Shown: positions 35,124 through 52,666 of the stretch, in pieces | How positions within the stretch are numbered: position 1 is the stretch's first letter | Layout: each line of letters opens with the position of its first letter | Assembly (NCBI GenBank): GCA_020628865.1 | Contig: JAHDEJ010000024.1 | Span: 1-64,000, forward strand | Reading direction: 5' to 3' | DNA: 64,000 nt | Source of the DNA: Acidimicrobiales bacterium | GTDB lineage: Bacteria > Actinomycetota > Acidimicrobiia > Acidimicrobiales > SHLQ01 | Program-made: the position numbers and the translations under genes | The notes under the pieces: model-generated | What the model was told of the DNA's origin: nothing | What the model saw: only the letters and a program-made list of their open reading frames with translations | Database searches by the model: none

Positions 35124-35210
35124 GTCGGAGTGGCGGAATTGGCAGACGCGCTAGCTTGAGGGGCTAGTGCCCGAAAGGGCGTGGGGGTTCAAGTCCCCCC
35201 TCCGACACCA
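35124..35210 (+). tRNA. tRNA-Leu (anticodon GAG)
   Basis: Class II tRNA of 87 bases including an encoded CCA. The acceptor stem pairs GTCGGAG (35124-35130) with CTCCGAC before A-CCA. The anticodon arm is CTAGC, loop TTGAGGG, GCTAG, giving anticodon GAG. A long variable arm (TGCCCGAAAGGGCG) and the T arm (GGGGGTTCAAGTCCCCC) follow. Its 3' part recurs at 41983-41997 and 55216-55239, so it seems to have been an integration site. Confidence 0.95.
35187..35210 (+). other. Putative attL: 3' end of tRNA-Leu
   Basis: The last 24 bases of the tRNA gene (T loop to CCA) match 55216-55239 at 22 of 24 positions, and its last 15 (CCCCCTCCGACACCA) match 41983-41997 exactly. tRNA 3' ends are common targets of tyrosine integrases, and an inactivated integrase gene lies at 39193-39852. 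Confidence 0.6.
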
Positions 35211-35357: not shown

Positions 35358-38300
35358 TCATCTTCTTCGCCGTCGCTTCTGTTTCGACCTCCTGGTGTTC
35401 GGGTTCTGCTTGGTTCGAGCGACGAGCTTGTCGAGCTCGCGATCCGCCAGCTGGTCGTAGGTCACGAACCCAATGGCGCGAGCCTGCTTCGACGCCTTCG
35501 CAAAGTGAAGGCCGACGAGGTCCGAACTTGTAGCGATCAAGCCTTGGACTTGCCACCCCCGAGGGTCGCTCTGCGTCCCAATCATTCCTAGGAGTTCAGC
35601 CAGGTTGACTCTTAGGAACCTCAGGCGTTCTTGGTGATGGGCGAGCGCCGACGAGTCCCCTTCAAAGAGCTTGTCGACTTCGTTGCGCAGCTCCGCCGGA
35701 GTTCGGGCAAGTTCGAAGTCCTTGGTCTCGATCGCGACCACAACCTTCGTCGAGGGATCGATCACGAGAACGTCGACGTCGCCGATGTCCTCGCCAGGTC
35801 GTCGTTCGAGCCGGAGGCTGCCCAGCTTTTTCACGTTCTCGAAGACGACGAACCGGTTCGCTGCTCTATAGAGATCGGCGACGGAGCGGTTGAACTCGAG
35901 ATTCTGAGCTTGCCGCTGCTCCGTGATGTACGACTTCATCTGAGTCGAACGCGCCTTGAGCCGTCCTGCGAGGACTAAGGCGAGCAGCTGGCGACCAGCA
36001 TTCAGGACGGCTCGTGGACCCCACGCAAGATCGACTTTGTCGGTAGTATCTCCGCACTCGGCGATCGGGCGCCGAACTGCCGAGCGGTCCCTGGAGAATC
36101 GCCACGGATACGCATCCGCCGGGTTGCCGGGGTCGGGGAAGTCTGGCAGCGCAGAGAGTGTCAGCAGGCCGAGGGCCGAGTCGACTCGGGCCGGCGTCAT
36201 CTCCAACGCAACGGCCAGCTCCTCGATTAGTTCGGTGCGCTCACGTCGGGCGACCTGGCCCGTGGCGACACGAGCCAACTCGGCCAGTTCGCTGGTGATC
36301 TCGGCGAGCTCTGTCGCAGTGAGTCCGAACTCTGCCTCGAACGCTGCATTGAGGGTTGATGGATCGAAGGAGTTGTCTTCAGCTCGTTCTGGCGATGCCC
36401 AGTTTCGGCTGTAGCCAGCCGAAGCCCGATCTAGCGCCCGCTGCGGCAACAACTGACCGAAGCTCTCGACGGCGGATTGATATGCGCCCTCGCGCGAGAT
36501 GCCGAGTCGCCCGGACGGCAACATTGATACTTCTGGGTCGGAGAGCCCGTGGCGGATTGCATCGCTCGTATACCCGAGCTCGACGATTTGCCTTGCGAGC
36601 GCAAGGAGGCGGTCGTACTTGGCTAGTGAGAGGTGTTCCCCACCTGCGGGACGAACGGCCGTTGCCATCTCAAGCAAGAACCGACTTGGTGGTCCAGTTG
36701 CTATCAGCGCCCTTCGGGCTTCGATAGCGTCGAGTACCGCAGACGAGTCTCCACCAAAGCAAGCAGTTTGGGCGGGCACCAGAAGGTTGGTGCGATGATC
36801 TAGGAACGCGAGGCGCTCCTGCTCACATAGCAGGTGCTCTATGACCTCTTGCGCGTCCAGCCCCTCGATCTCGCTTCGGAGCCTCGAAAACAGTCCTGCG
36901 ACAAGCCCGTTCAGGATGTTCGTTCGATCGGCCGCGCCAAAAGTTTGCGGCGCATCCCCGAACTGGGCTCGCAGGTCCTCGCCGACTTCATCGAGAACGA
37001 ACTCGGTGTCTGGGTCCTGCACGAGTCGAGGCCGCGCTGTGTAGCCGAGTTGAGCAGCGACGTTATCTCCGTCGCCGAAGACATTCAGCATCTTCGTCGC
37101 TGGGTCGAGCCCCAAACCACGGAGACGCGAGCGGCAGTCTTCACTCGACACGCCAGCCAGGTCGCAGAGAGCTTCCGCAACAGAAGCGGCGTACTCCATC
37201 TCCGCCGCATTGTCCGCTCCTCTCAGTTGTCCTAGAGCACCGTCTAGCAGAGTGACGTGGACAGTCCTGGCAGACGGGTCGACTGCAATACTCAGCCATC
37301 GGTCCGAAGGCTCAAACCCGTTGCTGGAGTCATCAGGGAGTGACTGGGCCTCGCATCGGACACGTATTGTCAGTTGGTGCGTTCCAGATTGCCGAAGCTC
37401 GCTAAGCGCATGAGTGATTAGCGAGCGCGTGCGCCAGATCCAGAATGCCGTAGCTTCTGCCAGATCTTCCGAGAGTTCTTGCTGTGAATCGTCAGCGGGT
37501 GCCGGTTGTACCCAGCAGTCGATCTCGAGCTCAACGATGTGCACGTAGGAGTCGGGAGGGTCGAGTGGCCGGTAGACCGGGGAGGCATTGTCGGCAGGCC
37601 ACCGCATGACCTCGAGCAAACCGCCGGACGGCGCGCGCACGGCATGCCGGTCGTTCTCCATGCGTCTGCTGAGCACGAGGGAAGCTCCACTGCCCGGAGC
37701 AACCGACATGAATGTCGGCGGTTGGTCATCGCCGAGGTAGAACCCGGAGCCATGGTCAAGATAGATGGAGAAATCGTCGAGTGCTGAGAAGGACATCGTC
37801 CTGCTCCGGGTCCGAAGACGATCCGATGCAAGCGCGAATTTCCATAGGGCAACAGGGTCAGGAGCGAGCGTCGACGCGAAGATCTCAAGCTCGTCCAGTC
37901 GGACGGTGAGGATTGGGGATCCGTCGCGGTGGCTTGCACGCGTGAATCCGACGAATTGACTCCGACCAAGTGGTGCCGAGATGACTAGGTGAAGGCAGTT
38001 CGCAAACCTCTGGGTCTTGTCGATCGCAGTTCGCACCTCAAGGATTCGCTCCTCGAGCCGCTTGGCTAGCTGACGGTCACCCATCATCTCGAACGGATAC
38101 CCGGGCCTGTAGCCGTCGAGACTGTCCGTTAGGCAAACGACATGGGCCACTTTGTCGGAGTCGAAGCTGTAGTAGCGCTCGCTGAACGCATCCGTGGGCG
38201 CAATGGCCCCATTCGGTGGCTGGATCGGGATCCACCGCATCCGGAGCAACTGGCTCGCGACGGTCTGTTGAGCTGTCTCCTGAAGCACTGAGGTCAGCGG

Positions 38301-39101
38301 CTCGGTGAGGTTGTTCTCGACAGCTCGAGCCAGCGTCCGGTGTGTGACTGAGGCCGCAAGACCACTTGGGAGACCTACGACCAGTCGGCCGTCGGAGAGT
38401 CTTTCAAGCGGATAGAGGTAGGACCGATCATCGGTTGGCGACTCCTGCTCGTGGTCGAACAGCGCCCTGGAGCCTGGAGCAACGAGCTGGTCGATGTCGA
38501 CATCGGGGCCGAGGTGTTGGAGGATCTCGGCGTCACTGAATGTGACCATGTCCATCAGATCTCTGAGCTCCGCCTCGTTCGGGACGATGAGACGCGATCT
38601 TGGTGATAGCTCAGGGGCTTCGTAGCGACGCAGCCCAGCTCGTTCGCAGACCGCCTCCGAAAGCTTCAGAAGCACCCGAGCGTCATGGAAGACGCTCGAA
38701 CGAAAGCCCTCTTGGTCTTCCGGCAGGGACCGCACGGAATCAAGAACGAGCTGACAACCCGCATGGGACCCCGAGGCGCCTCCTGCTACGACACGGTGAC
38801 CTCCGCCGAAGAAGGTGATCGAGCCAACGAAGCTCTCCTCAAAAGGGTCCTCGCCGGAGACAGTAGAAGCGCTTGCGATCGGCTCCTGCGTCAACATACG
38901 ACGCAGCTCTTGCCCGGTTACTCGACGCTGTTCCTCACCGATTGGGGCCCCTGCAGCCGTTTCGAGCAGTCGCTCGAAACGGGCCCACTTCGTAGCGTTT
39001 CCCGGGATGATCTGCAGTGCCCCGGCGGCGCGCAGGAGATCGTCTCGAACACCCCCGGACGAGGCAGCGAGCTCGGCAATGGTAGTCGGCCGCAAGTTCA
39101 T
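35358..39101 (-). CDS. Large uncharacterised protein with C-terminal PD-(D/E)XK-like nuclease motif
   Basis: A 1247-residue protein that I cannot assign to a named family. Near residues 1105-1130 it has GDVDVLVID followed 8-10 residues later by VVVAIETKDF, the D...ExK core of PD-(D/E)XK nucleases (as in Mrr/NERD-like domains), with an upstream helix containing Glu (NLEFNRSVADLY). The C-terminus is very basic (RRSKQKRRRRR). The first 1000 residues show no P-loop, helicase or membrane motifs that I can see. Third-position A/T is higher than in the flanking genes, which suggests transfer. It sits next to tRNA-Leu on an apparent island, so a stand-alone defence nuclease is a reasonable guess. ATG 39101 chosen; a TTG at 39137 is possible. 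Confidence 0.6.
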   Translation of the reverse strand: MNLRPTTIAELAASSGGVRDDLLRAAGALQIIPGNATKWARFERLLETAAGAPIGEEQRRVTGQELRRMLTQEPIASASTVSGEDPFEESFVGSITFFGGGHRVVAGGASGSHAGCQLVLDSVRSLPEDQEGFRSSVFHDARVLLKLSEAVCERAGLRRYEAPELSPRSRLIVPNEAELRDLMDMVTFSDAEILQHLGPDVDIDQLVAPGSRALFDHEQESPTDDRSYLYPLERLSDGRLVVGLPSGLAASVTHRTLARAVENNLTEPLTSVLQETAQQTVASQLLRMRWIPIQPPNGAIAPTDAFSERYYSFDSDKVAHVVCLTDSLDGYRPGYPFEMMGDRQLAKRLEERILEVRTAIDKTQRFANCLHLVISAPLGRSQFVGFTRASHRDGSPILTVRLDELEIFASTLAPDPVALWKFALASDRLRTRSRTMSFSALDDFSIYLDHGSGFYLGDDQPPTFMSVAPGSGASLVLSRRMENDRHAVRAPSGGLLEVMRWPADNASPVYRPLDPPDSYVHIVELEIDCWVQPAPADDSQQELSEDLAEATAFWIWRTRSLITHALSELRQSGTHQLTIRVRCEAQSLPDDSSNGFEPSDRWLSIAVDPSARTVHVTLLDGALGQLRGADNAAEMEYAASVAEALCDLAGVSSEDCRSRLRGLGLDPATKMLNVFGDGDNVAAQLGYTARPRLVQDPDTEFVLDEVGEDLRAQFGDAPQTFGAADRTNILNGLVAGLFSRLRSEIEGLDAQEVIEHLLCEQERLAFLDHRTNLLVPAQTACFGGDSSAVLDAIEARRALIATGPPSRFLLEMATAVRPAGGEHLSLAKYDRLLALARQIVELGYTSDAIRHGLSDPEVSMLPSGRLGISREGAYQSAVESFGQLLPQRALDRASAGYSRNWASPERAEDNSFDPSTLNAAFEAEFGLTATELAEITSELAELARVATGQVARRERTELIEELAVALEMTPARVDSALGLLTLSALPDFPDPGNPADAYPWRFSRDRSAVRRPIAECGDTTDKVDLAWGPRAVLNAGRQLLALVLAGRLKARSTQMKSYITEQRQAQNLEFNRSVADLYRAANRFVVFENVKKLGSLRLERRPGEDIGDVDVLVIDPSTKVVVAIETKDFELARTPAELRNEVDKLFEGDSSALAHHQERLRFLRVNLAELLGMIGTQSDPRGWQVQGLIATSSDLVGLHFAKASKQARAIGFVTYDQLADRELDKLVARTKQNPNTRRSKQKRRRRR

Positions 39102-39192: not shown

Positions 39193-39852
39193 CTACCTAC
39201 CGACGACGAGGTCGAGAACGTTCAGCCCGGCAGAATCAGCCCGGCCCACTCGCTCGGCGGCGTCGGACTGGAGCGGTGCTCTGACGTGGGTGTAGATGTC
39301 GGCGGTGATGCGTTCGCTGGCGTGGTTGAGCCGGTCTTGGACGACCTTCATCGGGACGTCGGCTTCGAGGGCGACGGTGGCCCAGCCGTGACGGAGGGCG
39401 TGGACGCTGATCGTCGGTAGCGGCTCGGCGGAGTGGTCGCGGTTGTAGCGGACTTGGGCTCGCTTGAACTCTCGGCTGAAACGTTCGGGGTGGAGGTAGT
39501 CGCCGTTCGGCTGAGCGAAGACGAGGTCGCGGACGTGGTAGCCAGCGAGGTCGCAGCCGGGTTCGGGCGATGCGCATACGTGGCTGGTGCCGGCGGCGAG
39601 GCGTTCCTGGTTCTGGATCGATCGCCAGGTCTTGAGGATGGCGAGGGTGCCTTGGTCGAGGATGATGGCGTGGTTCTCGCCGGTCTTGCCTTAGGTCTTT
39701 ACGACGAGCTGGTGGTTGACGCAGGTGACGGTCCAGATGAGGGCGGCGGTGCCTTGCTCGAAGTCGATGTCTTGCCAGCGGATTCCGAGGTTGGCGCCTC
39801 GACGGTCGCCGGATGTGGCGATGAACGCCCAGTCCCTGGGATCTACAGCTAG
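39193..39852 (-). pseudogene. Tyrosine integrase remnant (catalytic domain, nonsense codon)
   Basis: The reverse strand encodes a phage-type integrase C-terminal domain: GANLGIRWQDIDFEQGTA, then GKTGENHAIILDQGT, HALRHGWATVALEADVPMK with the H-x-x-R box, VVQDRLNHASERIT and the catalytic Tyr in ADIYTHV. The N-terminal arm and core-binding domain are missing, since the frame opens only near 39852. An in-frame TAA interrupts it near 39692 (VVKT-stop-GKTGE). It is therefore a truncated, inactive gene, plausibly the recombinase that once moved the segment anchored at tRNA-Leu. Confidence 0.8.
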
Positions 39853-39866
39853 ATCGAAACCTGTCC

Positions 39867-39902
39867 GCTCATCCGGTCAACGGTTTCGTTGACCGGATGA
39901 GC
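39867..39902. repeat. Perfect 16-bp inverted repeat
   Basis: GCTCATCCGGTCAACG, loop GTTT, then its exact reverse complement. It lies just upstream of the truncated end of the integrase remnant. It may be a terminator without a T-tract, a recombination junction or a regulatory site; the sequence alone does not decide. Confidence 0.6.
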
Positions 39903-39992
39903 ATCGGCGCAGACGACTATTCTTTTCAACTCGGGAACCAGATGCGCCGTTCAGACGTCAAAGTAGTAACTCACGCGAAAGGACTGCGACGG

Positions 39993-40631
39993 ATGAAGAG
40001 AGGTGCAGCTCGAAGAGCGACCCTACTGGTTGTCGTCTGCCTCACGCTGTACGGATGCTCCTCCGAGCCGAGCGACGTACTCGCCGCGGGGACCGGTGGC
40101 GAACCCACTCCCGAGTCGTCCGAAGCGTCCGTGACCGAGGTGAGGGATCTGTTGTTCGAGGACTCGCTCGACCAGATCGTCTCGCCCGCCCCTGACGAAG
40201 AGGCGCTCTCTCAACGAACCTCGTTCGTTCTGCTCGACGAGGACGGCTCGCAGCTCGCCACGCCAGGGGCCGAGACTCGTCGCTGGAGCATCCAGGCATG
40301 GAGGGAACGATCCGGCGACGTGAGCTTCGCCACAGAATTTCACCACTTCAGTCAAGACGATTCCGGTGCGCCGACAATATTCACCTGCGCATTCAACAGC
40401 GGCCTGATCGTGGGCGACGCTGTCGCGGGGTACCGGTACTTCGAGGGTCGCCGACCCAACGTGACGCAGCGGCTCGACATCGACGGATTCGATTGTGACG
40501 ACGAGCCGCATCTCCTGAGCGAAGAAGAAGCTCTCTTTAGCGATGTCTTCTTCGTCGACGTAGTGGACGGAGGTTTCGAGGTGACTTCAGCCGACGGTCA
40601 GGTGCTCCGACTGGTCCGGCAGGACTCGTAG
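39993..40631 (+). CDS. Putative lipoprotein of unknown function
   Basis: A 212-residue predicted lipoprotein. MKRGAARRATLLVVVCLTLYGCSSEPS gives a short signal peptide with lipobox LYGC (shown across two motifs: basic start, then hydrophobic core). An acidic Ser/Glu/Thr-rich linker follows, then a compact domain with SFVLLDEDGSQL and FFVDVVDGGFEVTSADGQVLRLV-type beta segments. I see no catalytic motif or family match. The ATG at 39993 was chosen because it places the signal peptide at the N-terminus; an in-frame ATG at 39897 would add 32 residues. It lies in the integrated segment beside the integrase remnant. Confidence 0.6.
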   Translation: MKRGAARRATLLVVVCLTLYGCSSEPSDVLAAGTGGEPTPESSEASVTEVRDLLFEDSLDQIVSPAPDEEALSQRTSFVLLDEDGSQLATPGAETRRWSIQAWRERSGDVSFATEFHHFSQDDSGAPTIFTCAFNSGLIVGDAVAGYRYFEGRRPNVTQRLDIDGFDCDDEPHLLSEEEALFSDVFFVDVVDGGFEVTSADGQVLRLVRQDS

Positions 40632-40785: not shown

Positions 40786-41004
40786 GTGAGCAACGTGCCC
40801 GAGACGCTTCAAGGCCGCGGTCGGGACGGTTCGACGGTGCCGAAGGCGAAGCGGGCTGGCGATGAGGCGTGGTGTTCGGGGTCGCATTCGGAGCCTCGGT
40901 CGGCTTCGGCGTATTCGAGTCGTGCGGTCTGTCGAGCGTGTGGCGACGATGTGTTGATCAACCGCAGCGGGCTTCTTCGCAAGCACCGTCGCTGGCGCTG
41001 GTGA
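40786..41004 (+). CDS. Small zinc-ribbon-like protein of mobile-element type
   Basis: A 72-residue product from a GTG start. Its second half, WCSGSHSEPRSASAYSSRAV then CRACGDDVLINRSGLLRKHRR, has the spacing C-x-G-S ... C-x2-C-G ... G-x-L-x-x-H-R seen in many small actinophage and integrative-element proteins. Two cysteine pairs plus histidines suggest a zinc ribbon. It lies between the lipoprotein gene and the SSB remnant and ends just before a strong hairpin. Small size makes the call uncertain. Confidence 0.45.
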   Translation: MSNVPETLQGRGRDGSTVPKAKRAGDEAWCSGSHSEPRSASAYSSRAVCRACGDDVLINRSGLLRKHRRWRW

Positions 41005-41013
41005 ACGCACCTA

Positions 41014-41034
41014 GGGCCCGGAGGTTCCGGGCCC
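41014..41034. terminator. Convergent hairpin terminator
   Basis: GGGCCCGGA, loop GGT, TCCGGGCCC: a perfect 9-bp stem between the end of the small zinc-ribbon gene (forward) and the end of the SSB remnant (reverse). It has no clear T-tract on either strand. Confidence 0.45.
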
Positions 41035-41050
41035 GCCCGCCGGCTGTGGG

Positions 41051-41252
41051 TTAGAAGGCTTCCTCGCCGGGCTTCGGGTCGTCTGTGGCCTTGGTCTTGG
41101 GGCCGTCGAGGTAGCTGACCTGGTTGGCGATGACTTCGTAGCGTTCCCGGTTGTTGCCGTCGTCGTCGGTCCAGGTGTTGGGGTTGAGGCGTTCGGCGAT
41201 GGCGACGAGTCGGCCTTTGGAGAGCCACTTGGCGTCGTTCTCGGCGGGTCTC
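41051..41252 (-). pseudogene. Single-stranded DNA-binding protein remnant (C-terminal part)
   Basis: In a frame different from the IS481 reading frame, the reverse strand encodes AKWLSKGRLVAIAERLNPN, TWTDDDGNNRERYEVIANQV and SYLDGPKTKATDDPKPGEEAF before TAA. This resembles the second half of the SSB OB fold (KGxxVxVxGRLxxxxWxDxxGxxRxxxEVxAxxVxFL) and a short acidic tail. The first half is absent, because the sequence switches into the IS481 remnant near 41252. It is a deletion relic of a plasmid- or phage-type ssb gene. Confidence 0.6.
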
Positions 41253-41254
41253 GA

Positions 41255-41927
41255 TCTGGTTCCGTCCGCCCGGGTAGCCGGCGAACCGGACCGTGTAAAC
41301 GAGGCCGTTGTCGGTGAGCACGGACGCCGGGAACCCGTGTGTTTCAGCGGTTTGGTCGAAGGTGTCCCGAACGATGTCGCCGGTGACCCGTCGGTGGCAG
41401 CTGACGTGGAGGGCGTATCGGGAGTGATCGTCGAGCCACGTGATGGTTTCGGTGTCGGTGCCGTCAGCGAGCCAGATGTGGGTGAAGTCTGATTGCCAGG
41501 TTTCGTTCGGCAACGCGGCTTCGAACCGGATATAGCTCGACTTTGGCCGTTTCTTCGGTGCTGGTTCGACGAGCCCGGCAGCGACGAGCCGGCGTCGGAT
41601 CGTTGAGACGGAAACGTCGAGCTCGTGCTCGTTGTGGAGGTGCCATTGGATCGTGTGAGGGCCGGCGTCGAGCCCGTCTGCGGTGAGTTGTTCGCGCAGG
41701 TTCACGATCGTGGCGTTCACGACATCTGCGAGCCGGTTCGGTGACGTGTGCGGCCGCCGTGACCGTGGTTCGAACGCCGCGTCACCCTCTGCGCGGTGCC
41801 GGGCCATCGGCTTGGAGACCCAGCCGCGCGATACCCCGAACCGCCTCGCTGCCTCGGATTGTGAGATCCCCTCCACCGTGACCGCCGTGATGATCGCTCG
41901 AGCCTTCGACATCACCCACGATGCCAA
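41255..41927 (-). pseudogene. IS481-family transposase, truncated
   Basis: Starts MASWVMSKARAIITAVTVEG with the IS481 helix-turn-helix (SQSEAARRFGVSRGWVSK, then a second HTH), and enters the rve integrase core: TWQSDFTHIWLADG with the first catalytic Asp, TWLDDHSRYALHVS, and SVLTDNGLVYTVRFAGYPGGRN with the second Asp. The family's next segment with the catalytic Glu is missing: after GGRNQIE the frame runs out of phase through the SSB remnant. Inactive. Its right end carries two copies of an IS-end-like repeat. Confidence 0.85.
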
Positions 41928-41982: not shown

Positions 41983-41997
41983 CCCCCTCCGACACCA
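41983..41997 (+). other. Partial tRNA-Leu 3'-end repeat (possible internal att site)
   Basis: CCCCCTCCGACACCA is identical to the last 15 bases of tRNA-Leu (35196-35210). It immediately follows the IS481 end and precedes the halohydrin-dehalogenase-like gene. It may be the junction of two successively integrated segments. Confidence 0.55.
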
Positions 41998-42118
41998 GCA
42001 GGAGTCCGATTGAACACGAGGGCCTTGGGGATAGACCCATGTGGACCGGCCACTCGATACGATGACCTTTGGAGGGATCAGCATCGGTCCTGTTCGACTC
42101 TTTTGTGGAGCTCCTGAA

Positions 42119-42784
42119 ATGACCCGTCGGGTGCTGGTAACCGATGCCGAAGACTTCGTCGGCCCAGCCGCGGTGCGGCGCTTCCACGACGGAGGCGACA
42201 CAGTCGTCACTCATACAGTTCCACTCGACACCCGAGCTGACGTCGCCGCCCTTGTTGCCGACGAGGGACCCTTCGATGTTGTGATCGCCAACCTCGACGC
42301 CCCGATCACGGTTGCGCCGATCACCGACCACAACGACGACATCACCAGCAGGCTCTTCGGGCGTCTCGTCAACCCGCTGTTCTGGCTCCTCGAAGAGTGC
42401 CTCCCGTCGATGTACCGGGCTGGGTGGGGCGCGATCGTCGTCCCGACCTCGGCAACGGCGATCCGATCCTCATCGCACCCGATCGCTGGCTACGAAGTGG
42501 CCCGAGCGGCGCAGATGCAACTCGTCCGCAGCGCCGGCAGAGAAGCCGCTGCACACGGAGTGCGGGTCAACGGCATCGCCCCCAACTTCATCGAGAACCC
42601 TTCCTACTTTCCGCCAGAGACCGTCGGTGAGCCCGAGTTCCAAGAGTCGTTGCGTCGTGAGGTGCCAGCACAGCGCCTGGGGCGAGGAGAGGAAGCCGCC
42701 GCGGCTATGTGGTGGCTGGCATCGGACCATGCCTCGTACATCTTCGGCGCGATCATCCCTACCGACGGCGGCTGGACCCTCTAG
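42119..42784 (+). CDS. Halohydrin-dehalogenase-like short-chain dehydrogenase family protein
   Basis: A 221-residue SDR-fold protein that lacks the NAD(P)-binding TGxxxGxG motif. In its place is T8-DAED-F13-V-G15, matching the T-x4-[F/Y]-x-G signature described for halohydrin dehalogenases. The catalytic triad is present as Ser111 (VVPTSAT), Tyr125 and Arg129 (YEVAR), where ordinary SDRs have Y-x3-K; the Ser-Tyr gap is 13 rather than 12 residues. The enzymes interconvert vicinal haloalcohols and epoxides. SDR-like NGIAPNFI and the C-terminal GAIIPTDGGWTL are kept. It is convergent with the IclR gene; their stop codons share CTAG. Substrate unknown. Confidence 0.65.
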   Translation: MTRRVLVTDAEDFVGPAAVRRFHDGGDTVVTHTVPLDTRADVAALVADEGPFDVVIANLDAPITVAPITDHNDDITSRLFGRLVNPLFWLLEECLPSMYRAGWGAIVVPTSATAIRSSSHPIAGYEVARAAQMQLVRSAGREAAAHGVRVNGIAPNFIENPSYFPPETVGEPEFQESLRREVPAQRLGRGEEAAAAMWWLASDHASYIFGAIIPTDGGWTL

Positions 42785-43605
42785 CGACCGCCGCGCAGCG
42801 GTGCGCCTGAGGTTTGGTGGTTCAGGTGTGGGGCCTGCGTGCCCGCAGCGGAAGCGAGGTCGTTCGAGATCTGAGTCGCGAGGCGCCGGACGGTTCGGGC
42901 GGCGTCGATCAGCGAGTCCTCGAATCGGAACTTCGGAGCAGTGATGCCGAGCGCAGCCACTGCCACGCCCGAAGGGCCACGGATCGGCGCGGAGCAGCCG
43001 ACGACACCCTCCTCGAACTCGTCGATGACGATCGCGTAGCCGGCCTCCCGGGCCCGGGCGACTTCTGCCGCGAACTTTGCAGGAGTCGTGCATCGAAGCC
43101 CGGGAGCTTCGGCGATGCGTCCGGGGGTGAGCCACGTGGCGGCGAGTTCGGGCGGTTCCGTCGCAAGAATCGCCCGGCAGGTCGAGCTGCTGGCGGCTGG
43201 GCCGGCGGCCCCGACCCGGGCATACAACGCCAGCGCATGCCGTGACGCCTCCGAGGCGATGATGATCGTCTCGTCTGCTCGAAGCACGACGACCTCGGCT
43301 GTCTCGCCGTAGGCCGAGGCGAGCTGCCGGAGGAAGGGGCGGCTCGCCGCGGCGACATGTGCTTCGAGGCTCTGCGCCGCGATGGTGTGCATGCGCCACC
43401 CGATCACGTAGCCCCGCGAGGAGCCGTCGCGATCCAGAATGCCCGCATCGGCCAAGGTCGAAAGGGCCCGTGAGACCTGACTCTTGTCTCGTCCGGTCTG
43501 GGCGGCCAACTCGCTGACCGAACTCGGCGAGCCGTTGGCGGCGACGATGTGGTCGAGCAGATCGATGTCTCGGCTCAGTCCCGCTGCGTTCTTTCGCGGT
43601 GCCAT
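42781..43605 (-). CDS. IclR-family transcriptional regulator
   Basis: A 274-residue regulator. The N-terminal winged helix (DIDLLDHIVAANGSPSSVSEL, AAQTGRDKSQVSRALSTLAD, GILDRDGSSRGY) is followed by an effector-binding domain (about 90-255), which includes AEVVVLRADETIIIASEASRH and GYAIVIDEFEEGVVGCSAPIRG. Start set at ATG 43605; an open frame extends further upstream but would overlap the divergent operon's leader. Its divergent placement, 93 bases from the methyltransferase start with palindromes between, makes it the likely regulator of the demethylation/threonine operon, with an onium compound or a metabolite as effector. Confidence 0.88.
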   Translation of the reverse strand: MAPRKNAAGLSRDIDLLDHIVAANGSPSSVSELAAQTGRDKSQVSRALSTLADAGILDRDGSSRGYVIGWRMHTIAAQSLEAHVAAASRPFLRQLASAYGETAEVVVLRADETIIIASEASRHALALYARVGAAGPAASSSTCRAILATEPPELAATWLTPGRIAEAPGLRCTTPAKFAAEVARAREAGYAIVIDEFEEGVVGCSAPIRGPSGVAVAALGITAPKFRFEDSLIDAARTVRRLATQISNDLASAAGTQAPHLNHQTSGAPLRGGR

Positions 43606-43698
43606 ATGCACACATCGTAGGCAGCAGTTGCCATATACGCAATCCAACTTGTGCACAATCGACGCGCTGGTCACGATGCCGTGGAGGGGAGGGCTCTC
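43606..43698. promoter_or_regulatory. Divergent promoter region with candidate IclR operators
   Basis: The 93 bases between the IclR and MttB starts contain TTGCCATATACGCAA (43628-43642; TTGC/GCAA half-sites spaced by 7) and the perfect palindrome TTGTGCACAA (43649-43658). A strong GGAGGGGAGGG ribosome-binding site at 43682-43692 serves the ATG at 43699. Assigning the palindromes to IclR is inference. Confidence 0.5.
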
Positions 43699-45239
43699 AT
43701 GTCCGAACGAACGAGGCGTCGCCAGGGTCGGCGGGGAGCCGCGCAGGGACCGCCAGCGATCGAGCAGCCGCCGTTCCGCCTTCATCGGCGGTCTGTCGAG
43801 CCGACGCGTGTCGTCTCCGACGACGAGCTCGAAGCGGTGCACGAGTCATCGCTGGCGATCCTGCGCGATGTCGGCATCGACGTGCTCCTGCCCGACGCTC
43901 GAGCGAGGCTCGAGGCGGCGGGTTGCACGGTGTCGATCTCTGACGACCGCGTGCGATTCGATCCTGAGATGGTCATGGACTACGTCGGCTCTGCGCCGGC
44001 CGAGTTCACGCTGCATGCGCGCAACCCGGCTCACACCGTGCAGATCGGCGGCGACAATGTGGTGTTCTCCGCTGTCGCCAGCCCGCCCAATGTGAGCGAC
44101 GCTGCCGGTGGGCGTCGTACGGGCAACATGGAGGACTTTCAGAACCTCGTGCGCCTGAGTCAGCACCTCAACGCGGTCCAGGTCCATGCGGGCTACCCGG
44201 TCGAGCCTGCGGACGTCCACGCCTCGGTTCGCCATCTCCACGCCATCGCGGACATTGCAAACTCAGCGACAAGGCCGTGAACGCCTACAGCCTCGGAGCC
44301 GACCGCAACCGCGACGCCCTCGAGATTCTTCGGATTGCGCACCAACTCTCGGACGACGAGATCGACGTCAACACGATTGTGTACTCGGTCATCAACACAT
44401 CGTCGCCGCTGCGCTTGGACGAGCCGATGTGCACCGGCATCATCGAATACGCCGCCCGGAACCAGGCGGTCGTCGTCACCCCATTTACGCTCGCAGGCGC
44501 CATGGCACCGGTCACCATCGCCGGGGCCGTTGCGCAGCAGAACGCGGAAGCGCTCGCCGGCATTTGCCTCGCCCAGGTTGTGCGACGAGGGGCGCCGGTC
44601 TTGTATGGCGGATTCACGTCGAACGTCGACATGAAGTCCGGTTCGCCCGCGTTCGGCACGCCAGAGTTCATGCAGGCCGCAATGCTCGGCGGGCAACTCG
44701 CCCGGCGGTACCGACTTCCATACCGCTCGTCGAACGTCAATGCGGCCAACGCAGTCGACGCCCAAGCCGGCTACGAATCGGTCTTCTCGCTGTGGGGAGC
44801 GATCATGGGCGGCGCCAACCTCGTATTCCATGGAGCTGGATGGTTGGAAGGCGGCCTCCGCGCGTCGTACGAGAAGATGGTCCTCGACGCCGACCTGATC
44901 AACATGGTCGCCACCTGGCTTCAACCGCTCGTCGTCGACGACGCAACGCTCGCCCTGGAAGCGATCGCCGAGGTCGGTCCCGGTGGACACTTCTTCGGGG
45001 TGCAGCACACGCAGGACCGATACCGCAACGCCTTCTACTCGCCGATGGTGTCGGACTGGCGCAACTTCGAATCGTGGGCCGAGGCCGGCTCGCCCACTGC
45101 CGACACCAAGACGGCAGCTCTGGCAGCCCAACTGCTCGCCGAATACCAGCAACCTCCCATGGACCCCGCCGTGCTCGAAGAGATCGATGCATTCGTCGAT
45201 CGCCGAGTCGCCCAGGGCGGCGTCACGACCGACTTCTAG
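43699..45239 (+). CDS. MttB-family (trimethylamine/betaine) methyltransferase, one-base frameshift
   Basis: Member of the MttB superfamily, whose members move a methyl group from a quaternary or tertiary amine to a corrinoid protein. The first part (43699-44280) ends HLHAIADIANSATRP; the second (in the next frame, to 45239) continues AVNAYSLGADRNRDALEILR. Adding one A to the AAA at 44259-44261 joins them as ADIAKLSDKAVNAYSLG, giving about 513 residues, the normal size. The second part has GGFTSNVDMKSGSPAFGTPE and GAGWLEGGL. No in-frame TAG is seen, so this is a non-pyrrolysine member. The shift is a mutation or a sequence error. No corrinoid-protein gene is adjacent. First gene of the operon. 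Confidence 0.85.
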
Positions 45240-45266
45240 TCCGCACGAAAGAACGAGGAAGAAGTA

Positions 45267-47795
45267 ATGAAGACCAACGCACGAGTCGTCGTCGTCGGCG
45301 GAGGCGTCGTCGGTGCCAGCGTGCTGTACCACCTGACGAAGAACGGCTGGACCGACGTCGTCCTCCTCGAACGAACCGAGCTGACGGCCGGTTCAACCTG
45401 GCATTCGGCCGGTGGCATGCACACTCTCAACGGCGACCCGAACGTCGCCAAACTCCAGCAGTACACGATCGAGCTGTACAAGGAGATCGAGGCCCTATCG
45501 GGTCGCGACTGTGGAATTCATTTGACCGGCGGACTCATGCTGGCCGACAGCGAGGAGCGCATGGACTGGCTGCGCATGGCTCACGCTCGCGGTCGGTACC
45601 TCGGAATGGACACCGAGCTCATCAGCGTCGCGGAGGCGAAGAAGCTTATGCCGCTGCTCGAGGAGGAGTACTTCGTGGGAGCGATGTACGACGCCCACGA
45701 AGGTCACGTCGATCCCTCCGGCGTGACCCACGCGTACGCCCAGTGCGCCCGAGACAACGGCGCTTCCATTCACCGCAACAGTTGGGTCCGCTCGCTGGCT
45801 CGAACCGCCGAAGGCTGGGACGTCGAGGTCATCGAGACATCCAGTGGCGAGGTAAAGGGCACCATCAGCTGCGAACACGTCGTCAACGCCGGTGGCCTCT
45901 GGGCCCGCGAGGTCGGCCGCATGGCCGGCGTCGAACTGCCGGTGCTCGCCATGGAGCACATGTACCTGCTGACCGAGGACATTCCCGCCATCGCCGACTA
46001 CAACGCCGAACACGGCGAGGTCCTGCACTGCATCGACTTCGGCGGCGAGATCTACATGCGTCAAGAAGGCGGCGGGCTGCTGCTCGGCACGTACGAGCAA
46101 GGCGGCAAACCATGGTCGGTCGAGGAGACCCCATGGGACTTCGGCATGCGGCTCCTCACCCCCGACCTCGACCGGATCGCAGAGTCGCTCGACGTCGGCT
46201 TTCGTCACTTCCCCGTGTTCGAGGACGCCGGTATCAAACAGGTCATCAACGGCCCGTTCACCTTCGCCCCCGACGGCAACCCGCTGCTCGGTCCGATCCG
46301 CGGCCTCCCCGGCTTCTGGAGCGCATGCGCCGTCATGGCTGGGCTCAGCCAGGGCGGCGGTGTCGGTCTGTCGCTCGCCAACTGGATGACCGACGGCGAT
46401 CCAGGCTTCGACATCTGGGGGATGGATGTCGCACGGTACGGCGACTACGCCACGCTCGAATACACGAGCGAGAAGGTGCAGGAGAACTACAGCCGACGGT
46501 TCCGTATCCAGTTCCCTAACGAGGTGCTCCCGGCCGCACGCCCTTTTGAAACGTCGCCGATCTACGACCGGCTCGTCGCTGAAAACGCGGTCTGGGGCGA
46601 CGCGTACGGACTCGAAAGCGCACTGTGGTTCCAGAAGCCGGGACTCGACCCGGTCGAGGAGGTCACCTTCGGCCGCTCCAACGCCTGGGACTCCGTTCGC
46701 GAAGAATCCCTCGCTGTTCGCAGCGGCGTCGGGGTCATGGAGACGACCGGCTTCGCCAAGTTCGTCTTCAGCGGCGCGGATGCGCGGAGCTATCTCGATT
46801 CGATCATCACCAACCGACTGCCGGCTCCGGGACGAATGGTCCTGGCGCCGATGGTCAACCACAACGGCAAGCTCATCGGCGATCTCACCGTCGCCTGTCT
46901 TGGGCCGACGCCCGGCGTTGCCGAAGGTCCTCGCACCACACCGACCGGTGGCGCAACGCAGAACACGGGCGACCAGGAACGCTTCGTCGTGTTCGGTTCG
47001 GGCGTGGCAACCCGCTTCTACGAGCGTTGGTTCGATCAGACGATCCCGACCGGCGCCAACGTCGCATACAGCACGTTGGGCTGGGACCTCTGTGGTCTCG
47101 CCATCGCAGGACCACGGTCAAGAACACTGCTCGAGCGGCTCACCACGACCGACGTGTCCGGCGAGGCGTTCCGGTTCATGGACTTCCGACAGCTCGACCT
47201 GGGGCCGATCCCGGTGTGGTGCGGGCGGGTCTCGTTCTCAGGCGACCTGGGATATGAGTTCTGGATGTCGTCGAGTCGACAACGGGCGACGCTCGACCTG
47301 CTGCAACGAGAAGGTGAAGACTTGGGCCTGCGATTGTTCGGCCTGCACGCGCTCGATTCGCTTCGCCTCGACAAGGGCTTTGGCACGTGGGGCCGCGAAT
47401 ATCGGCCGATCTACGACCCTTACGAGGCCGGCCTCGGCCGTTTCGTGAAGCTCGACAAAGGCGACTTCATCGGCCGCGAGGCGTTGGTGGCAGCCCAAAC
47501 AACGGGGCCGGAGCGTCGACTGCTCACATGGACTGTCGACACCGACCCGGGGCGCGGCGGCGCCGACGTCATTGGCGACGAGCCGATCTGGCACGACGGC
47601 GAGGTCGTCGGGTGGGTCACCTCGGGTGGCTACTCCCATCACATGGATACCTCGGTGGCCATGGGTTACGTGCCTGCCGAACTCGCCGGTTCGGACGGAG
47701 CGTTTGAGATCGAGATCCTCGGGGTCCGCAGACAGGCGGCGCTCGTCGACGGTTGTCTCTGGGATTCCGCGGGCGAACGAATGAGAAAGGCCTGA
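45267..47795 (+). CDS. FAD-dependent dimethylglycine/sarcosine dehydrogenase-like protein with GcvT domain
   Basis: An 842-residue fusion. Residues 1-400 form a DAO-type FAD oxidoreductase (VVVVGGGVVGASVLYHL, then the H-containing AGSTWHSAGGMHTLN as in covalent-FAD DMGDH/SarDH), and NPLLGPIRGLPGFWSACAVM closes the FAD domain. Residues about 440-840 form a GcvT/aminomethyltransferase domain that can pass the oxidised methyl group to tetrahydrofolate. Such enzymes demethylate N-methylated amino acids (dimethylglycine, sarcosine). Substrate here could be an N-methylated homoserine, given the genes that follow. GAGGAAG is the ribosome-binding site. 28 bases after the MttB gene and 2 bases before the next gene. 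Confidence 0.9.
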   Translation: MKTNARVVVVGGGVVGASVLYHLTKNGWTDVVLLERTELTAGSTWHSAGGMHTLNGDPNVAKLQQYTIELYKEIEALSGRDCGIHLTGGLMLADSEERMDWLRMAHARGRYLGMDTELISVAEAKKLMPLLEEEYFVGAMYDAHEGHVDPSGVTHAYAQCARDNGASIHRNSWVRSLARTAEGWDVEVIETSSGEVKGTISCEHVVNAGGLWAREVGRMAGVELPVLAMEHMYLLTEDIPAIADYNAEHGEVLHCIDFGGEIYMRQEGGGLLLGTYEQGGKPWSVEETPWDFGMRLLTPDLDRIAESLDVGFRHFPVFEDAGIKQVINGPFTFAPDGNPLLGPIRGLPGFWSACAVMAGLSQGGGVGLSLANWMTDGDPGFDIWGMDVARYGDYATLEYTSEKVQENYSRRFRIQFPNEVLPAARPFETSPIYDRLVAENAVWGDAYGLESALWFQKPGLDPVEEVTFGRSNAWDSVREESLAVRSGVGVMETTGFAKFVFSGADARSYLDSIITNRLPAPGRMVLAPMVNHNGKLIGDLTVACLGPTPGVAEGPRTTPTGGATQNTGDQERFVVFGSGVATRFYERWFDQTIPTGANVAYSTLGWDLCGLAIAGPRSRTLLERLTTTDVSGEAFRFMDFRQLDLGPIPVWCGRVSFSGDLGYEFWMSSSRQRATLDLLQREGEDLGLRLFGLHALDSLRLDKGFGTWGREYRPIYDPYEAGLGRFVKLDKGDFIGREALVAAQTTGPERRLLTWTVDTDPGRGGADVIGDEPIWHDGEVVGWVTSGGYSHHMDTSVAMGYVPAELAGSDGAFEIEILGVRRQAALVDGCLWDSAGERMRKA

Positions 47796-47797
47796 TC

Positions 47798-49120
47798 ATG
47801 GCTAACGAGAATCAGTACGACGCCATCATCATCGGTGCGGGCGTGATCGGTGCGGCTATCGGCTACGAACTGTCGAAGGCAGGCCGTCGAACGCTCAACA
47901 TCGACAAGCTGCCCGCAGCCGGGTATGGGTCGACGAGCAATACGTGCGCCATCATTCGCTTCAGCTACAGCACCTACGACGGTGTCGCGATGGCGTGGGA
48001 GGGACAGCACTACTGGGTCAACTGGCGGGAGTACCTCGGCGGCGACGTCGACGAACGCGGTTTGATCGACTTCGTCCAGTGCGGCACCGCCCTGCTGAAG
48101 AAGTCCGGAGGGCACTCGCACCACGAGAAGGTCGTGCCGCTGCTCACCGAGCTCGACATCCCGTTCGAGGACTGGGACCTCCCTGCGTTGCTCGATCGGC
48201 TGCCTGCGCTCAACGGATCGGTGTTCGGCCCGCCGAAGCGTCCCGACGATGACGGGTTCTGGGCCGAGCCGACCGAACAACTTCTCGGCGCCGTGTGGAC
48301 GCCCGACGCCGGGTACATCTCCGATCCGCAACTGTCGACCCACAACCTCCAGCGGGCGTGTGAGAACGTCGGCGGCGAGTTCGTGTTCAACACCGAAGTG
48401 ACGGCCATCAACCAGGCCGCTGGTCGGGTCACCGGAGTCACCTTGTCGACCGGCGAGACGATCTCGGCGCCCGTGGTCGTGAATGTTGCCGGCCCCCACA
48501 GCTTCGTCGTCAATCGTATGGCTGGGCTCGAAGGCACCATGAACATCGGGACCAAGGCACTTCGCCACGAGGTGCACCACGTCGCCTCGCCCGACGGCGT
48601 CAACTACGGCGCGACCGGCTGCCACGTGCAGGACGGTGACACCGGCATCTATTTCCGGCCCGAGTCCGGCGACAACATCCTCATCGGTTCCGAAGACCCC
48701 GACTGCGACCCGCAGGAATGGATCGAGGACCCCGACGACTACGACACCGAGGTCTCACAGGAACAATGGGAAGCCCAGGTGCTCCGGCTCGCACGGCGAA
48801 TGCCCGACCTCGGTGTGCCCAACACCAAGCGGGGCGTCGTCGACCTCTACGACGTCGCCGACGATTGGATCCCGATTTACGACAAGACCGATCTCGGCGG
48901 CTTCTACGTCGCGATCGGCACGTCGGGCAACCAGTACAAGAACGCCGGAGTCGCGGCGGCCGCGATGGCTGAGCTCATCGACGCGGTCGAGGGCGGTCAT
49001 GACCACGACGCAGAGCCCGTCGTCCACGTGGGGCGCTACACCGGACTCGAGATCGACATGTCGAGCTTCGGTCGGAACCGTGAGATCAACCCGAACAGCA
49101 GCTTCTCGGTGAACGGTTAG
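47798..49120 (+). CDS. FAD-dependent oxidoreductase (monomeric sarcosine oxidase/SoxB-like)
   Basis: A 440-residue DAO-family flavoprotein: dinucleotide-binding IIIGAGVIGAAIGYELSKAG, then YGSTSNTCAIIRFSYST and VVVNVAGPHSFVVNRMAG, with a C-terminal FYVAIGTSGNQYKNAGVAA segment. Relatives oxidise secondary or tertiary N-methyl amino acids, releasing formaldehyde and H2O2. With the preceding fusion protein it would provide two successive N-demethylations. The ATG at 47798 is two bases after the upstream stop; an upstream in-frame GTG-type start would overlap the previous gene. No GcvT domain here. Confidence 0.88.
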   Translation: MANENQYDAIIIGAGVIGAAIGYELSKAGRRTLNIDKLPAAGYGSTSNTCAIIRFSYSTYDGVAMAWEGQHYWVNWREYLGGDVDERGLIDFVQCGTALLKKSGGHSHHEKVVPLLTELDIPFEDWDLPALLDRLPALNGSVFGPPKRPDDDGFWAEPTEQLLGAVWTPDAGYISDPQLSTHNLQRACENVGGEFVFNTEVTAINQAAGRVTGVTLSTGETISAPVVVNVAGPHSFVVNRMAGLEGTMNIGTKALRHEVHHVASPDGVNYGATGCHVQDGDTGIYFRPESGDNILIGSEDPDCDPQEWIEDPDDYDTEVSQEQWEAQVLRLARRMPDLGVPNTKRGVVDLYDVADDWIPIYDKTDLGGFYVAIGTSGNQYKNAGVAAAAMAELIDAVEGGHDHDAEPVVHVGRYTGLEIDMSSFGRNREINPNSSFSVNG

Positions 49121-49152
49121 TTGCGGGTACTGGCGATGGCGAGGAAGTAGCG

Positions 49153-49989
49153 ATGACCATCATCAGGGTCCCAGGATCGTCGGCGAATCTCGGCCCCGGT
49201 TTCGATGTGCTCGGGATGGCCGTCGACCGGTACCTCGACTTTCGACTGGTCGACGATGACGTCGATGCGAGCGACTCCAATTGGCGTCTCTACGACGCTG
49301 ACGAAACCCATCTCGCCGTGCGAACGTTTCGCGAAGCCGGGGGACAAGGCCGCGTCTGTATCGCGTCGGCGATCCCGCCCGCCCGCGGTCTCGGCTTCTC
49401 TGGCGCTGCGAGAGCAGCGGGGCTGTTCGCGGCAGCGATCCAGCAGGGTTCGTCGATCGAAGAGTCGCGAGACGAGGTCTTTGCGAGTGCCTCCGAGCTC
49501 GAAGGTCACAGCGACAACGTCGCCGCTTCGATCTACGGCGGCGTCACGGTCGCGGCCGGCGGAGTGGTCGAACGGTTTCCTCTCGGACAGGACCTTGCCG
49601 TCGTTTTGTGGATCCCCGCGAATGGTTCCGGAACCGACGCCTCACGTCGGTCGCTTCCCGAGCACTACCGACGCGACGATGTCGTCTTCAACCTGGGGCG
49701 GGTCGCGCTATTCGCCGCCGCCCTTGCGAGCGGGTCGCTTGATCGGCTGGAGCTCGCCACGCAGGACCGTCTCCATCAAGAGCAGCGGTTGTCGGATCTG
49801 CCAGAGTCGGCCATGGCGTTGCGCTGTGCCCAAGACGCTGGGGCGTACTGTGCCTGGTTGTCGGGTAGCGGCCCGACCGTCGCGGCGTTCTGCGACCCGA
49901 CCAATGCACGCGACATCGCCGCACGGCTTCCAGACGAGGCCGAGGTCGCGATCGCCGAAATCGACGACCGGGGCGCACGATGTCTGTGA
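49153..49989 (+). CDS. thrB: Homoserine kinase (GHMP family)
   Basis: Phosphorylates homoserine to O-phosphohomoserine. The 278-residue product has the GHMP opening VPGSSANLGPGFDVLGMAVD, an ATP-binding motif PPARGLGFSGAARAAG (a variant of PxxxGLGSSAA, with Phe-Ser-Gly in place of Ser-Ser-Ala), EGHSDNVAASIYGG, and the late glycine-rich AYCAWLSGSGPTVAAF. The variant motif hints at a specialised paralogue. Embedded in an operon with N-demethylating enzymes and overlapping thrC by 10 bases, so a catabolic use of homoserine is plausible; plain threonine biosynthesis is the alternative. Confidence 0.85.
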   Translation: MTIIRVPGSSANLGPGFDVLGMAVDRYLDFRLVDDDVDASDSNWRLYDADETHLAVRTFREAGGQGRVCIASAIPPARGLGFSGAARAAGLFAAAIQQGSSIEESRDEVFASASELEGHSDNVAASIYGGVTVAAGGVVERFPLGQDLAVVLWIPANGSGTDASRRSLPEHYRRDDVVFNLGRVALFAAALASGSLDRLELATQDRLHQEQRLSDLPESAMALRCAQDAGAYCAWLSGSGPTVAAFCDPTNARDIAARLPDEAEVAIAEIDDRGARCL

Positions 49990-51413: not shown

Positions 51414-52666
51414 TGCACCGAACCGACTTCTACGAGCGCCTGGAGGGCACGCTCGAGGGCATTCGAGACGACGGCCTCTGGAAACACGAGCACGAACTCA
51501 CTTCGCCTCAATCGGGGGAGATCTCGCTGGCTGACGCCGGGACCCATATCAACCTCTGCGCCAACAACTACCTGGGCCTGGCGGATGATCCGAGTGTCAT
51601 CGCCGCCGCGAAGGATGCGATGGATCGGCTTGGGCATGGCATGGCATCGGTGCGCTTCATCTGCGGGACAACGGAGGACCACCGTCTTCTCGAGAACGAC
51701 ATCGCGGACTATCTCGGCACAGACGCTGCTATCACCTTCGCGGCGTGCTTCGATGCCAACGCCGCCGTGTTCGAACCGTTGCTCGGCGCCGACGACGCCA
51801 TCGTCAGCGACTCCCTGAACCACGCGTCGATCATCGATGGCGTCAGACTGTCGAAGGCGAGGAGGTACCGCTTCGCCACACGGGACATGACCGACCTTCG
51901 CACGCAGCTCGAAGTGGCGCGGGCCGAGGGCGACGGGGCCATCCTGATCGTGACCGACGGGGTGTTCTCGATGGACGGCTACCTTGCCGACCTTGGAGCG
52001 ATCTGCGAACTCGCGGACGAATTCGACGCCCTGGTCATGGTGGACGACTGCCATGCCACGGGGCTGATCGGTCCGGGCGGACGTGGAACGCCGACCCACT
52101 TTGACGTCGTCGATCGGGTGGACATCGTGACGAGCACGCTGGGCAAGGCGCTCGGTGGAGCGATGGGTGGCTTCGTCGCTGCTCGTCAGCCAATCGTCGA
52201 CCTGCTGCGGCAACGTGGCCGCCCGTACCTGTTCTCGAACGCGCTGTCTCCAGCTCATGTCGGGGGAGCGCGTGAAGCGATTCGTATTGCTTCTGCCAGC
52301 GACGACCGTCGCGACCGCCTGATGCGCCACGCCGAACGATTCCGCTCGGCCATGACTGCGGCGGGCTTCGAGCTCACGGGAGCGGGCCACCCGATCGTTC
52401 CGGTCATGTTCGGCGACGCGACGGTCGCCGTCTCGATGGCGGAACGGCTGCTGGAGTTCGGTGTCTACGTGACTCCCTTCTCGTTTCCGGTCGTTCCGCA
52501 CGGGCAGGCCAGGATCCGGACACAGATGAGCGCTGCGCTCACCGACGAGCACCTTGATACGGCGATCTCCGCCTTCATGCAGGCCGCCGACGACCTCGGC
52601 ATCGACCGGGCCAACGCGGCCTCGTCGGCAGAGCCGACAAAGAGCGGAAATGGAGGCGCGCGGTGA
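51413..52666 (+). CDS. kbl: Glycine C-acetyltransferase (2-amino-3-ketobutyrate CoA ligase)
   Basis: PLP enzyme of the alpha-oxoamine synthase family; splits 2-amino-3-oxobutyrate with CoA into glycine and acetyl-CoA. The 417-residue product has NLCANNYLGLADDPSVIAAA, GTTEDHRLLENDIADYLG, DSLNHASIIDGVRLSKA, FSMDGYLADL, VDDCHATGLIGPGGRG and the PLP lysine in TSTLGKALGGAMGGF, all matching KBL rather than BioF or HemA. It starts at 51413 by TGATG overlap with thrC and its stop overlaps the tdh GTG. KBL plus TDH next to it give the two-step threonine degradation route. Confidence 0.92.
   Translation: MHRTDFYERLEGTLEGIRDDGLWKHEHELTSPQSGEISLADAGTHINLCANNYLGLADDPSVIAAAKDAMDRLGHGMASVRFICGTTEDHRLLENDIADYLGTDAAITFAACFDANAAVFEPLLGADDAIVSDSLNHASIIDGVRLSKARRYRFATRDMTDLRTQLEVARAEGDGAILIVTDGVFSMDGYLADLGAICELADEFDALVMVDDCHATGLIGPGGRGTPTHFDVVDRVDIVTSTLGKALGGAMGGFVAARQPIVDLLRQRGRPYLFSNALSPAHVGGAREAIRIASASDDRRDRLMRHAERFRSAMTAAGFELTGAGHPIVPVMFGDATVAVSMAERLLEFGVYVTPFSFPVVPHGQARIRTQMSAALTDEHLDTAISAFMQAADDLGIDRANAASSAEPTKSGNGGAR

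What the first reader, a model, noticed from the sequence alone, without database searches (positions are those of the whole stretch)
35358..39101. Large single-gene candidate defence protein next to tRNA-Leu
A ~1247-residue protein of no recognised family ends in a D...ExK nuclease-like core (GDVDVLVID ... VAIETKDF) and a very basic tail. It lies alone between a tRNA integration site and an integrase remnant and has a different codon bias from its neighbours. Large one-gene nucleases on islands are a common form of undiscovered anti-phage system. The 1000 residues before the nuclease are the unexplained part.
Basis: partly seen in the sequence, partly recalled or inferred. Interest (0 to 1): 0.68.

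Follow-up and report, generated by a model that had tools for sequence, protein, structure and literature searches.

The report
Distant Upx-type anti-phage nuclease
The gene is an intact, very distant relative of Upx, a known one-gene anti-phage nuclease, carried as cargo in a small tRNA-inserted element whose sister copies in two related species carry other anti-phage genes in the same slot.

Summary
In detail: one intact 1,247-residue ORF lies on the minus strand (35358-39101) between tRNA-Leu(GAG) and a broken tyrosine-integrase gene, with low GC3 and an invariant C-terminal D...ExK core. "No recognised family" is wrong. It is a full-length, about 18%-identical homologue of Upx, a known one-gene anti-phage protein (NCBIfam E 3.8e-52, PADLOC 1.3e-43). 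Its AlphaFold model superposes over its whole length on the cryo-EM structure of Upx (9wuf, Z 29.7, 1,092 residues). The "unexplained 1000 residues" are therefore the Upx body; part of it is a second PD-(D/E)XK-like fold (BspD6I/FokI/Rpb5-like) without a recognisable active site here. The protein scores far below NCBI's Upx cut-off and falls in a separate, fully supported clade spanning bacteria and archaea. The tRNA 3' end is repeated exactly at 41983-41997, bounding a 6.8-kb island. Two sister species carry the same integrase at a tRNA-Leu with other cargo between them: a TIR/8xMP pair in one, CBASS with NucC in the other. Relatives elsewhere sit beside R-M, Argonaute, Avs and Thoeris-type genes. 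The defence reading is well supported, but this is a diverged member of a known kind. Activity is untested.

The parts
35358..39101 (-). Upx-like gene, 1247 aa
   Evidence: Intact ORF; NCBIfam Upx E 3.8e-52; PADLOC Upx E 1.3e-43; fold of 9wuf
35457..35945 (-). C-terminal PD-(D/E)XK nuclease domain (residues about 1053-1215; D1110, E1125, K1127, H1156, R1159)
   Evidence: Secondary structure of the model, invariant residues, structural neighbours
35994..36317 (-). Probable winged-helix region (residues about 929-1036)
   Evidence: Weak: CRP and SarX-type structural matches, Z 6-8
37662..38759 (-). Second restriction-endonuclease-like fold (residues about 115-480), probably without a working active site
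   Evidence: Domain modelled alone; BspD6I, R.BspD6I2, FokI and Rpb5-type matches; TDS at the (D/E)xK position
35124..35210 (+). tRNA-Leu(GAG), integration site
   Evidence: ARAGORN
35196..35210 (+). Left att repeat, CCCCCTCCGACACCA
   Evidence: Exact 15-mer, only two copies in the genome
41983..41997 (+). Right att repeat, CCCCCTCCGACACCA
   Evidence: Exact 15-mer, only two copies in the genome
39196..39852 (-). Tyrosine integrase remnant (C-terminal part only, in-frame TAG at 39691-39693)
   Evidence: Pfam Phage_integrase E 1.5e-14; frames; 96.5% DNA identity to the integrase of G003
39897..40631 (+). Unknown 244-aa ORF in the island
   Evidence: No Pfam match
40809..41927 (-). Broken transposase with an rve domain (IS481-like)
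   Evidence: Pfam rve E 1.7e-11

Best explanation
The gene encodes a one-protein anti-phage nuclease of the Upx superfamily, carried as cargo of a small, now immobile, tRNA-Leu integrative element. Inferred mechanism: the large N-terminal body (helical parts, a PD-(D/E)XK-like pseudonuclease fold and a probable winged helix) binds or senses a feature of invading phage DNA or of a DNA-protein complex. That positions or releases the C-terminal PD-(D/E)XK domain, which cuts DNA with D1110, E1125 and K1127 and divalent metal. No Walker motif or NTPase domain was found, so recognition and cutting are probably not powered by ATP. Shown: intact ORF, full-length homology and fold match to Upx, invariant catalytic core, island boundaries, and defence cargo in the same slot of sister elements. 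Inferred: DNA as substrate, phage as target, the sensing role of the N-terminus, and metal dependence.
For: NCBIfam Upx_antiphage E 3.8e-52; PADLOC Upx E 1.3e-43; phmmer to PDB 9wuf E 7.6e-26 over residues 19-1151. 9wuf is Upx (title; a Salmonella ORF that scores 1483 bits with NF042954 matches it over 844/844 residues). AlphaFold model pLDDT 85, pTM 0.84; Foldseek E 4.9e-46, TM 0.75, and VIA Z 29.7 over 1092 residues to 9wuf. C-terminal D...ExK...HxxR invariant in 27 diverged homologues. Island bounded by an exact 15-mer found twice only in this genome and twice only in sister species G003. The same integrase (607 bp at 96.5% in G003, 586 bp at 81% in G006) lies at tRNA-Leu with ThsB_TIR + 8xMP genes in G003 and CBASS cyclase/E1-E2/JAB/NucC in G006 between integrase and tRNA. 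Homologues elsewhere lie beside type I R-M, pAgo, Avs2, Avs1b-like, ThsB-TIR, HamB/TIR/caspase and SIR2 genes. Patchy distribution: 7 of 395 genomes of the class, none of ten other same-genus genomes.
Against: Identity to characterised Upx is only about 18%, and the score is far under NCBI's Upx cut-off (176.8 against 1900 bits), so shared function is extrapolated. There are no activity data. The neighbour survey has no background control. The literature I could read only lists Upx as a nuclease-type system, so the mechanism of Upx itself is not established by it.
Confidence: 0.78

Rival explanations
1. A DNA nuclease that mainly serves competition between mobile elements (plasmid or ICE exclusion) or stabilisation of its own island, rather than phage defence.
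For: Several relatives lie on plasmids, and the gene is on an integrative element at a site with tandem att-like sequences. The nuclease domain of the plasmid-defence protein DdmD is among the structural neighbours of the N-terminal fold.
Against: The slot in a sister element holds CBASS-NucC, a recognised anti-phage system, and the nearest characterised homologue is annotated as anti-phage.
Confidence: 0.12
2. An effector that needs a partner, for example a type I R-M enzyme or an Argonaute, and is therefore orphaned and inert in this window.
For: In Flagellimonas the homologue is surrounded on one strand, with short gaps, by type I R-M genes and a Piwi/pAgo gene; Flavivirga has the R-M genes, and Sinomicrobium has the same ORF layout. 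One Acidobacteriota locus has two Upx-like genes in tandem.
Against: No R-M or pAgo gene was seen in the window island or beside the relative in Acidimicrobiales mtb01, and Upx is catalogued as a single-gene system.
Confidence: 0.06
3. A decayed gene in an immobile remnant, no longer expressed or selected.
For: The neighbouring integrase and IS481-like transposase are both broken.
Against: The 1247-codon ORF is uninterrupted, every family-invariant residue is present, and the model is confident nearly throughout.
Confidence: 0.04

Closest known systems
Upx (NCBIfam NF042954, PADLOC PDLC02221; Gao et al. 2020; structure 9wuf)
   Same: Length, full-length fold, C-terminal PD-(D/E)XK core, one-gene layout, mobile-island setting.
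   Different: About 18% identity and far below the family's curated cut-off. It lies in a separate clade (100/100) of actinobacterial, archaeal, Bacteroidota, Deinococcus and other sequences, apart from the proteobacterial clade that holds Salmonella Upx.
Nt.BspD6I, R.BspD6I2 and FokI cleavage domains
   Same: The N-terminal half has a fold like their catalytic domains (Z 10.4 to 8.3).
   Different: No sequence similarity. The (D/E)xK position reads TDS in the window; only the Bosea and Mesorhizobium relatives have EAK there.
Card1, Can2 and McrC nuclease domains
   Same: Fold of the C-terminal domain (Z about 7 to 9).
   Different: No CARF sensor and no GTPase partner was found with this protein.

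Membership tests
Upx (NCBIfam equivalog NF042954) | Score above the curated cut-off of 1900 bits | tested here: not met
   176.8 bits, E 3.8e-52
Upx superfamily (wider sense) | Full-length homology and the same overall fold as Upx 9wuf | tested here: met
   phmmer residues 19-1151, E 7.6e-26; TM 0.75 and Z 29.7 over 1092 residues
Upx superfamily (wider sense) | C-terminal PD-(D/E)XK active site shared with Salmonella Upx | tested here: met
   D1110, E1125, K1127, H1156 and R1159 invariant, Salmonella row included
Upx superfamily (wider sense) | One-gene system | tested here: met
   No intact partner gene between the tRNA and the integrase remnant
Upx superfamily (wider sense) | Protects cells against phage | not testable with these tools
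   Needs a phage challenge
PD-(D/E)XK nuclease superfamily | Alpha/beta core of the superfamily carrying D...(D/E)xK | tested here: met
   Order of strands and helices and placement of DVDVLVID and AIETK in the model; neighbours
PD-(D/E)XK nuclease superfamily | DNA cleavage | not testable with these tools
   Needs a biochemical assay
FokI/BspD6I-type nuclease (N-terminal half) | Restriction-endonuclease-like fold | tested here: met
   Domain modelled alone, pLDDT 84; BspD6I Z 10.4, R.BspD6I2 8.9, FokI 8.3, Rpb5-type 6-8. Foldseek E-values for these are weak, 0.2-0.4
FokI/BspD6I-type nuclease (N-terminal half) | Catalytic D...(D/E)xK on the hairpin | tested here: inconclusive
   Residues 325-327 are TDS and no (D/E)xK is conserved in the clade; the position is inferred from alignment and secondary structure, not from an inspected superposition

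The most novel reading that the evidence does not exclude
The 21-member clade that holds the window protein is a functionally separate lineage from proteobacterial Upx. It uses its conserved FDxDK-bearing pseudonuclease fold as the sensor for a different phage signal, and in some hosts it is wired to type I R-M or Argonaute operons.
Probability: 0.2. Interest if true: 0.55.

Novelty: new member of a known kind. Interest (0 to 1): 0.42.

Why it matters
It extends the Upx superfamily far beyond the annotated equivalog family, into Actinomycetota, archaea, Bacteroidota, Deinococcus and others, and supplies an alignment deep enough to name catalytic residues for mutation. It also reveals a cargo slot between a tRNA-Leu and its integrase that holds different defence genes in each of three species of one actinobacterial genus: a ready place to look for further systems.

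Tried and rejected
Pfam gave only a chance-level HTH_18 match. Single-sequence pattern scans of genome and viral contigs found no relatives; the alignment-based genome scan found 24, and the viral scan again none. No relatives in phage records. Middling matches of the central region to M1 aminopeptidases (Z 6.5-7.7) were not believed: no HExxH motif, and Z is within the noise stated by the tool. No P-loop motif was found. A paper on the 9wuf structure and the original Upx paper were not in the library.

Full report
Observation. The window holds one uninterrupted minus-strand ORF, 35358-39101, of 1247 codons from ATG. It lies 147 bases past tRNA-Leu(GAG) at 35124-35210, pointing towards it, and next to a broken tyrosine-integrase gene (39196-39852) that keeps the C-terminal catalytic part (Pfam Phage_integrase, E 1.5e-14) but has an in-frame TAG at 39691-39693 and no N-terminal part. 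GC3 is 0.68 against 0.79-0.89 for most flanking genes.

Identity. Pfam sees nothing, but NCBIfam gives Upx_antiphage at E 3.8e-52 (176.8 bits, curated cut-off 1900) and PADLOC gives Upx at E 1.3e-43. The only PDB sequence match is 9wuf, E 7.6e-26 over residues 19-1151. Its title is 'Cryo-EM structure of Upx', and a Salmonella ORF truncated by its contig matches its C-terminal 844 residues end to end and scores 1483 bits with the NCBI Upx model. A paper table lists Upx among nuclease-type systems and cites Gao et al. 2020 for it (PMC10855318). From my own knowledge, the name there stands for an uncharacterised PD-(D/E)XK defence protein.

Homologues. A genome scan with a five-row alignment found 24 loci in Acidimicrobiia, Propionibacteriaceae, Bacillus, Acidobacteriota, Planctomycetota, Chloroflexota, Bacteroidota, Alphaproteobacteria, Methanosarcina and Helarchaeota; this is a lower bound because only one pattern was used. 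Plasmid copies occur in Deinococcus, Bosea and Sinorhizobium. The family is rare near home: 7 of 395 genomes of the class, and none of ten other same-genus genomes. In 27 aligned proteins the C-terminal G1107, D1110, E1125, K1127, H1156 and R1159 are invariant, as are E634, E811, R1004 and P1012. A maximum-likelihood tree separates, at 100/100, a proteobacterial clade with Salmonella Upx (7 rows) from a 21-row clade with the window protein; its nearest rows are Acidimicrobiales and Acidimicrobiaceae sequences at 40-43% identity. It is thus a superfamily member, not a member of the NCBI equivalog family.

Structure. AlphaFold on residues 18-1215 with 21 sequences gave pLDDT 85 and pTM 0.84. Foldseek puts 9wuf first at E 4.9e-46 with TM 0.75 and nothing else significant; VIA-align gives Z 29.7 over 1092 residues. 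The last 160 residues have the PD-(D/E)XK order of strands and helices, with DVDVLVID and VVVAIETK on adjacent strands, and resemble AF1548, Card1, Can2, Cdn1, EndoMS and McrC nuclease domains. The N-terminal half, modelled again alone (pLDDT 84), matches 9wuf (Z 24.7) and then the cleavage domains of Nt.BspD6I (10.4), R.BspD6I2 (8.9) and FokI (8.3), followed by Rpb5 and many other members of the same fold. Foldseek E-values for these are weak, so this is a fold resemblance, not proven descent. The hairpin strands are residues 307-314 and 317-325. The conserved FDxDK (313-317) sits at their turn, and the place where (D/E)xK would be expected reads TDS in the window but EAK in Bosea and Mesorhizobium. 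I infer a second, probably catalytically dead nuclease fold in this protein. The unexplained 1000 residues are therefore the Upx body.

Island. The last 15 bases of the tRNA gene, CCCCCTCCGACACCA, recur exactly at 41983-41997. The 15-mer occurs only at these two places in the 5.36-Mb assembly, and in sister species G003 only at the same tRNA-Leu and 75.6 kb downstream; chance would give about 0.01 copies per genome. G003 shares 206 bp at 94% across the tRNA and its flank, and 607 bp at 96.5% across the integrase. Between tRNA and integrase G003 carries a ThsB_TIR-like gene (E 5e-5) and an 8xMP membrane protein (E 4e-37). A third species, G006, carries the same integrase (586 bp, 81%) beside tRNA-Leu(AAG), and between them a complete-looking CBASS set: cyclase (E 9.6e-114), E1-E2 (1.4e-129), JAB (3e-16) and NucC (5.8e-84). 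The slot that holds the Upx-like gene in the window thus holds other defence genes in two sister elements. A weaker att-like site at 55215-55238 resembles the right end of the G003 element, so the locus looks like tandem accretion.

Context elsewhere. Neighbours of homologues include a ThsB-type TIR gene directly downstream in Acidimicrobiales mtb01 (PADLOC E 2.9e-78), Avs2 in Deinococcus sp. QL22 (1.5e-94), a HamB-like helicase, TIR and caspase genes in Bosea, type I methyltransferase, specificity and restriction subunits with an Argonaute in Flagellimonas and type I R-M in Flavivirga, a DUF1156 methyltransferase in Methanosarcina and an Avs1b-like gene in Helarchaeota, SIR2 in Hymenobacter, and a second Upx-like gene in tandem in a Pyrinomonadaceae MAG. 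The survey has no random-gene control, so I use it as consistent evidence, not as a measured enrichment. No constant housekeeping context was seen.

Mechanism. Shown: intact gene, full-length Upx fold, complete conserved active site, mobile-island cargo position. Inferred: the N-terminal body recognises a phage-associated DNA feature, and the C-terminal domain cuts DNA. No ATP-binding motif was found, which argues against a translocating restriction enzyme. How self is told from non-self remains open; no methyltransferase was recognised in the island.

Verdict. The most useful new points are the size and separateness of the clade, the second nuclease-like fold, and the three-species defence-cargo slot.

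Noticed in passing
L065:6130-7010 (G003:C31, next to tRNA-Leu): ThsB_TIR-like protein followed by an 8xMP octameric-membrane-family protein, no ThsA seen nearby: a possible two-gene TIR/membrane-effector defence pair in the slot that holds the Upx-like gene in the window.
   Followed up: partly
L088:2142-5966 (G006:C105): CBASS-like set (cyclase, E1-E2, JAB, NucC) between the same integrase and tRNA-Leu(AAG).
   Followed up: yes
L030:3804-16840; same ORF layout in L033; L024 in part: Upx-like gene embedded in an apparent operon with type I R-M genes (hsdM, hsdS before it, hsdR after it); in L030 a Piwi/pAgo gene and an unknown 287-aa protein lie directly upstream.
   Followed up: partly
L020:10034-17400: Two diverged Upx-like genes in tandem, a few bases apart, in a Pyrinomonadaceae MAG.
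   Followed up: partly
window 55215-55238: Second att-like site; 171 bp ending there are 82% identical to the right end of the G003 element, suggesting a second tandem element covering about 41998-55238.
   Followed up: partly
window 42041-55025: The proposed second module carries metabolic genes: SDR, IclR regulator, a MttB-type trimethylamine methyltransferase split over two overlapping ORFs (43651-44280 and 44277-45239), DAO oxidoreductase, GHMP kinase, threonine-synthase-like, alcohol dehydrogenase, M24 peptidase.
   Followed up: partly
L023, L024, L027, L029-L031, L035, L038: N-termini of the Upx-like proteins: Methanosarcina and Bacteroidota homologues start with a SEC-C-like cysteine motif (such as IGRNDPCPCGSGKKYKHC) that the window protein lacks.
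   Followed up: no
L028:13809-17840, L022:4877-7906, L037:13760-16117: Large proteins (1344, 1010 and 786 aa) near Upx-like genes with no hit in Pfam or PADLOC: candidate unknown defence proteins.
   Followed up: no
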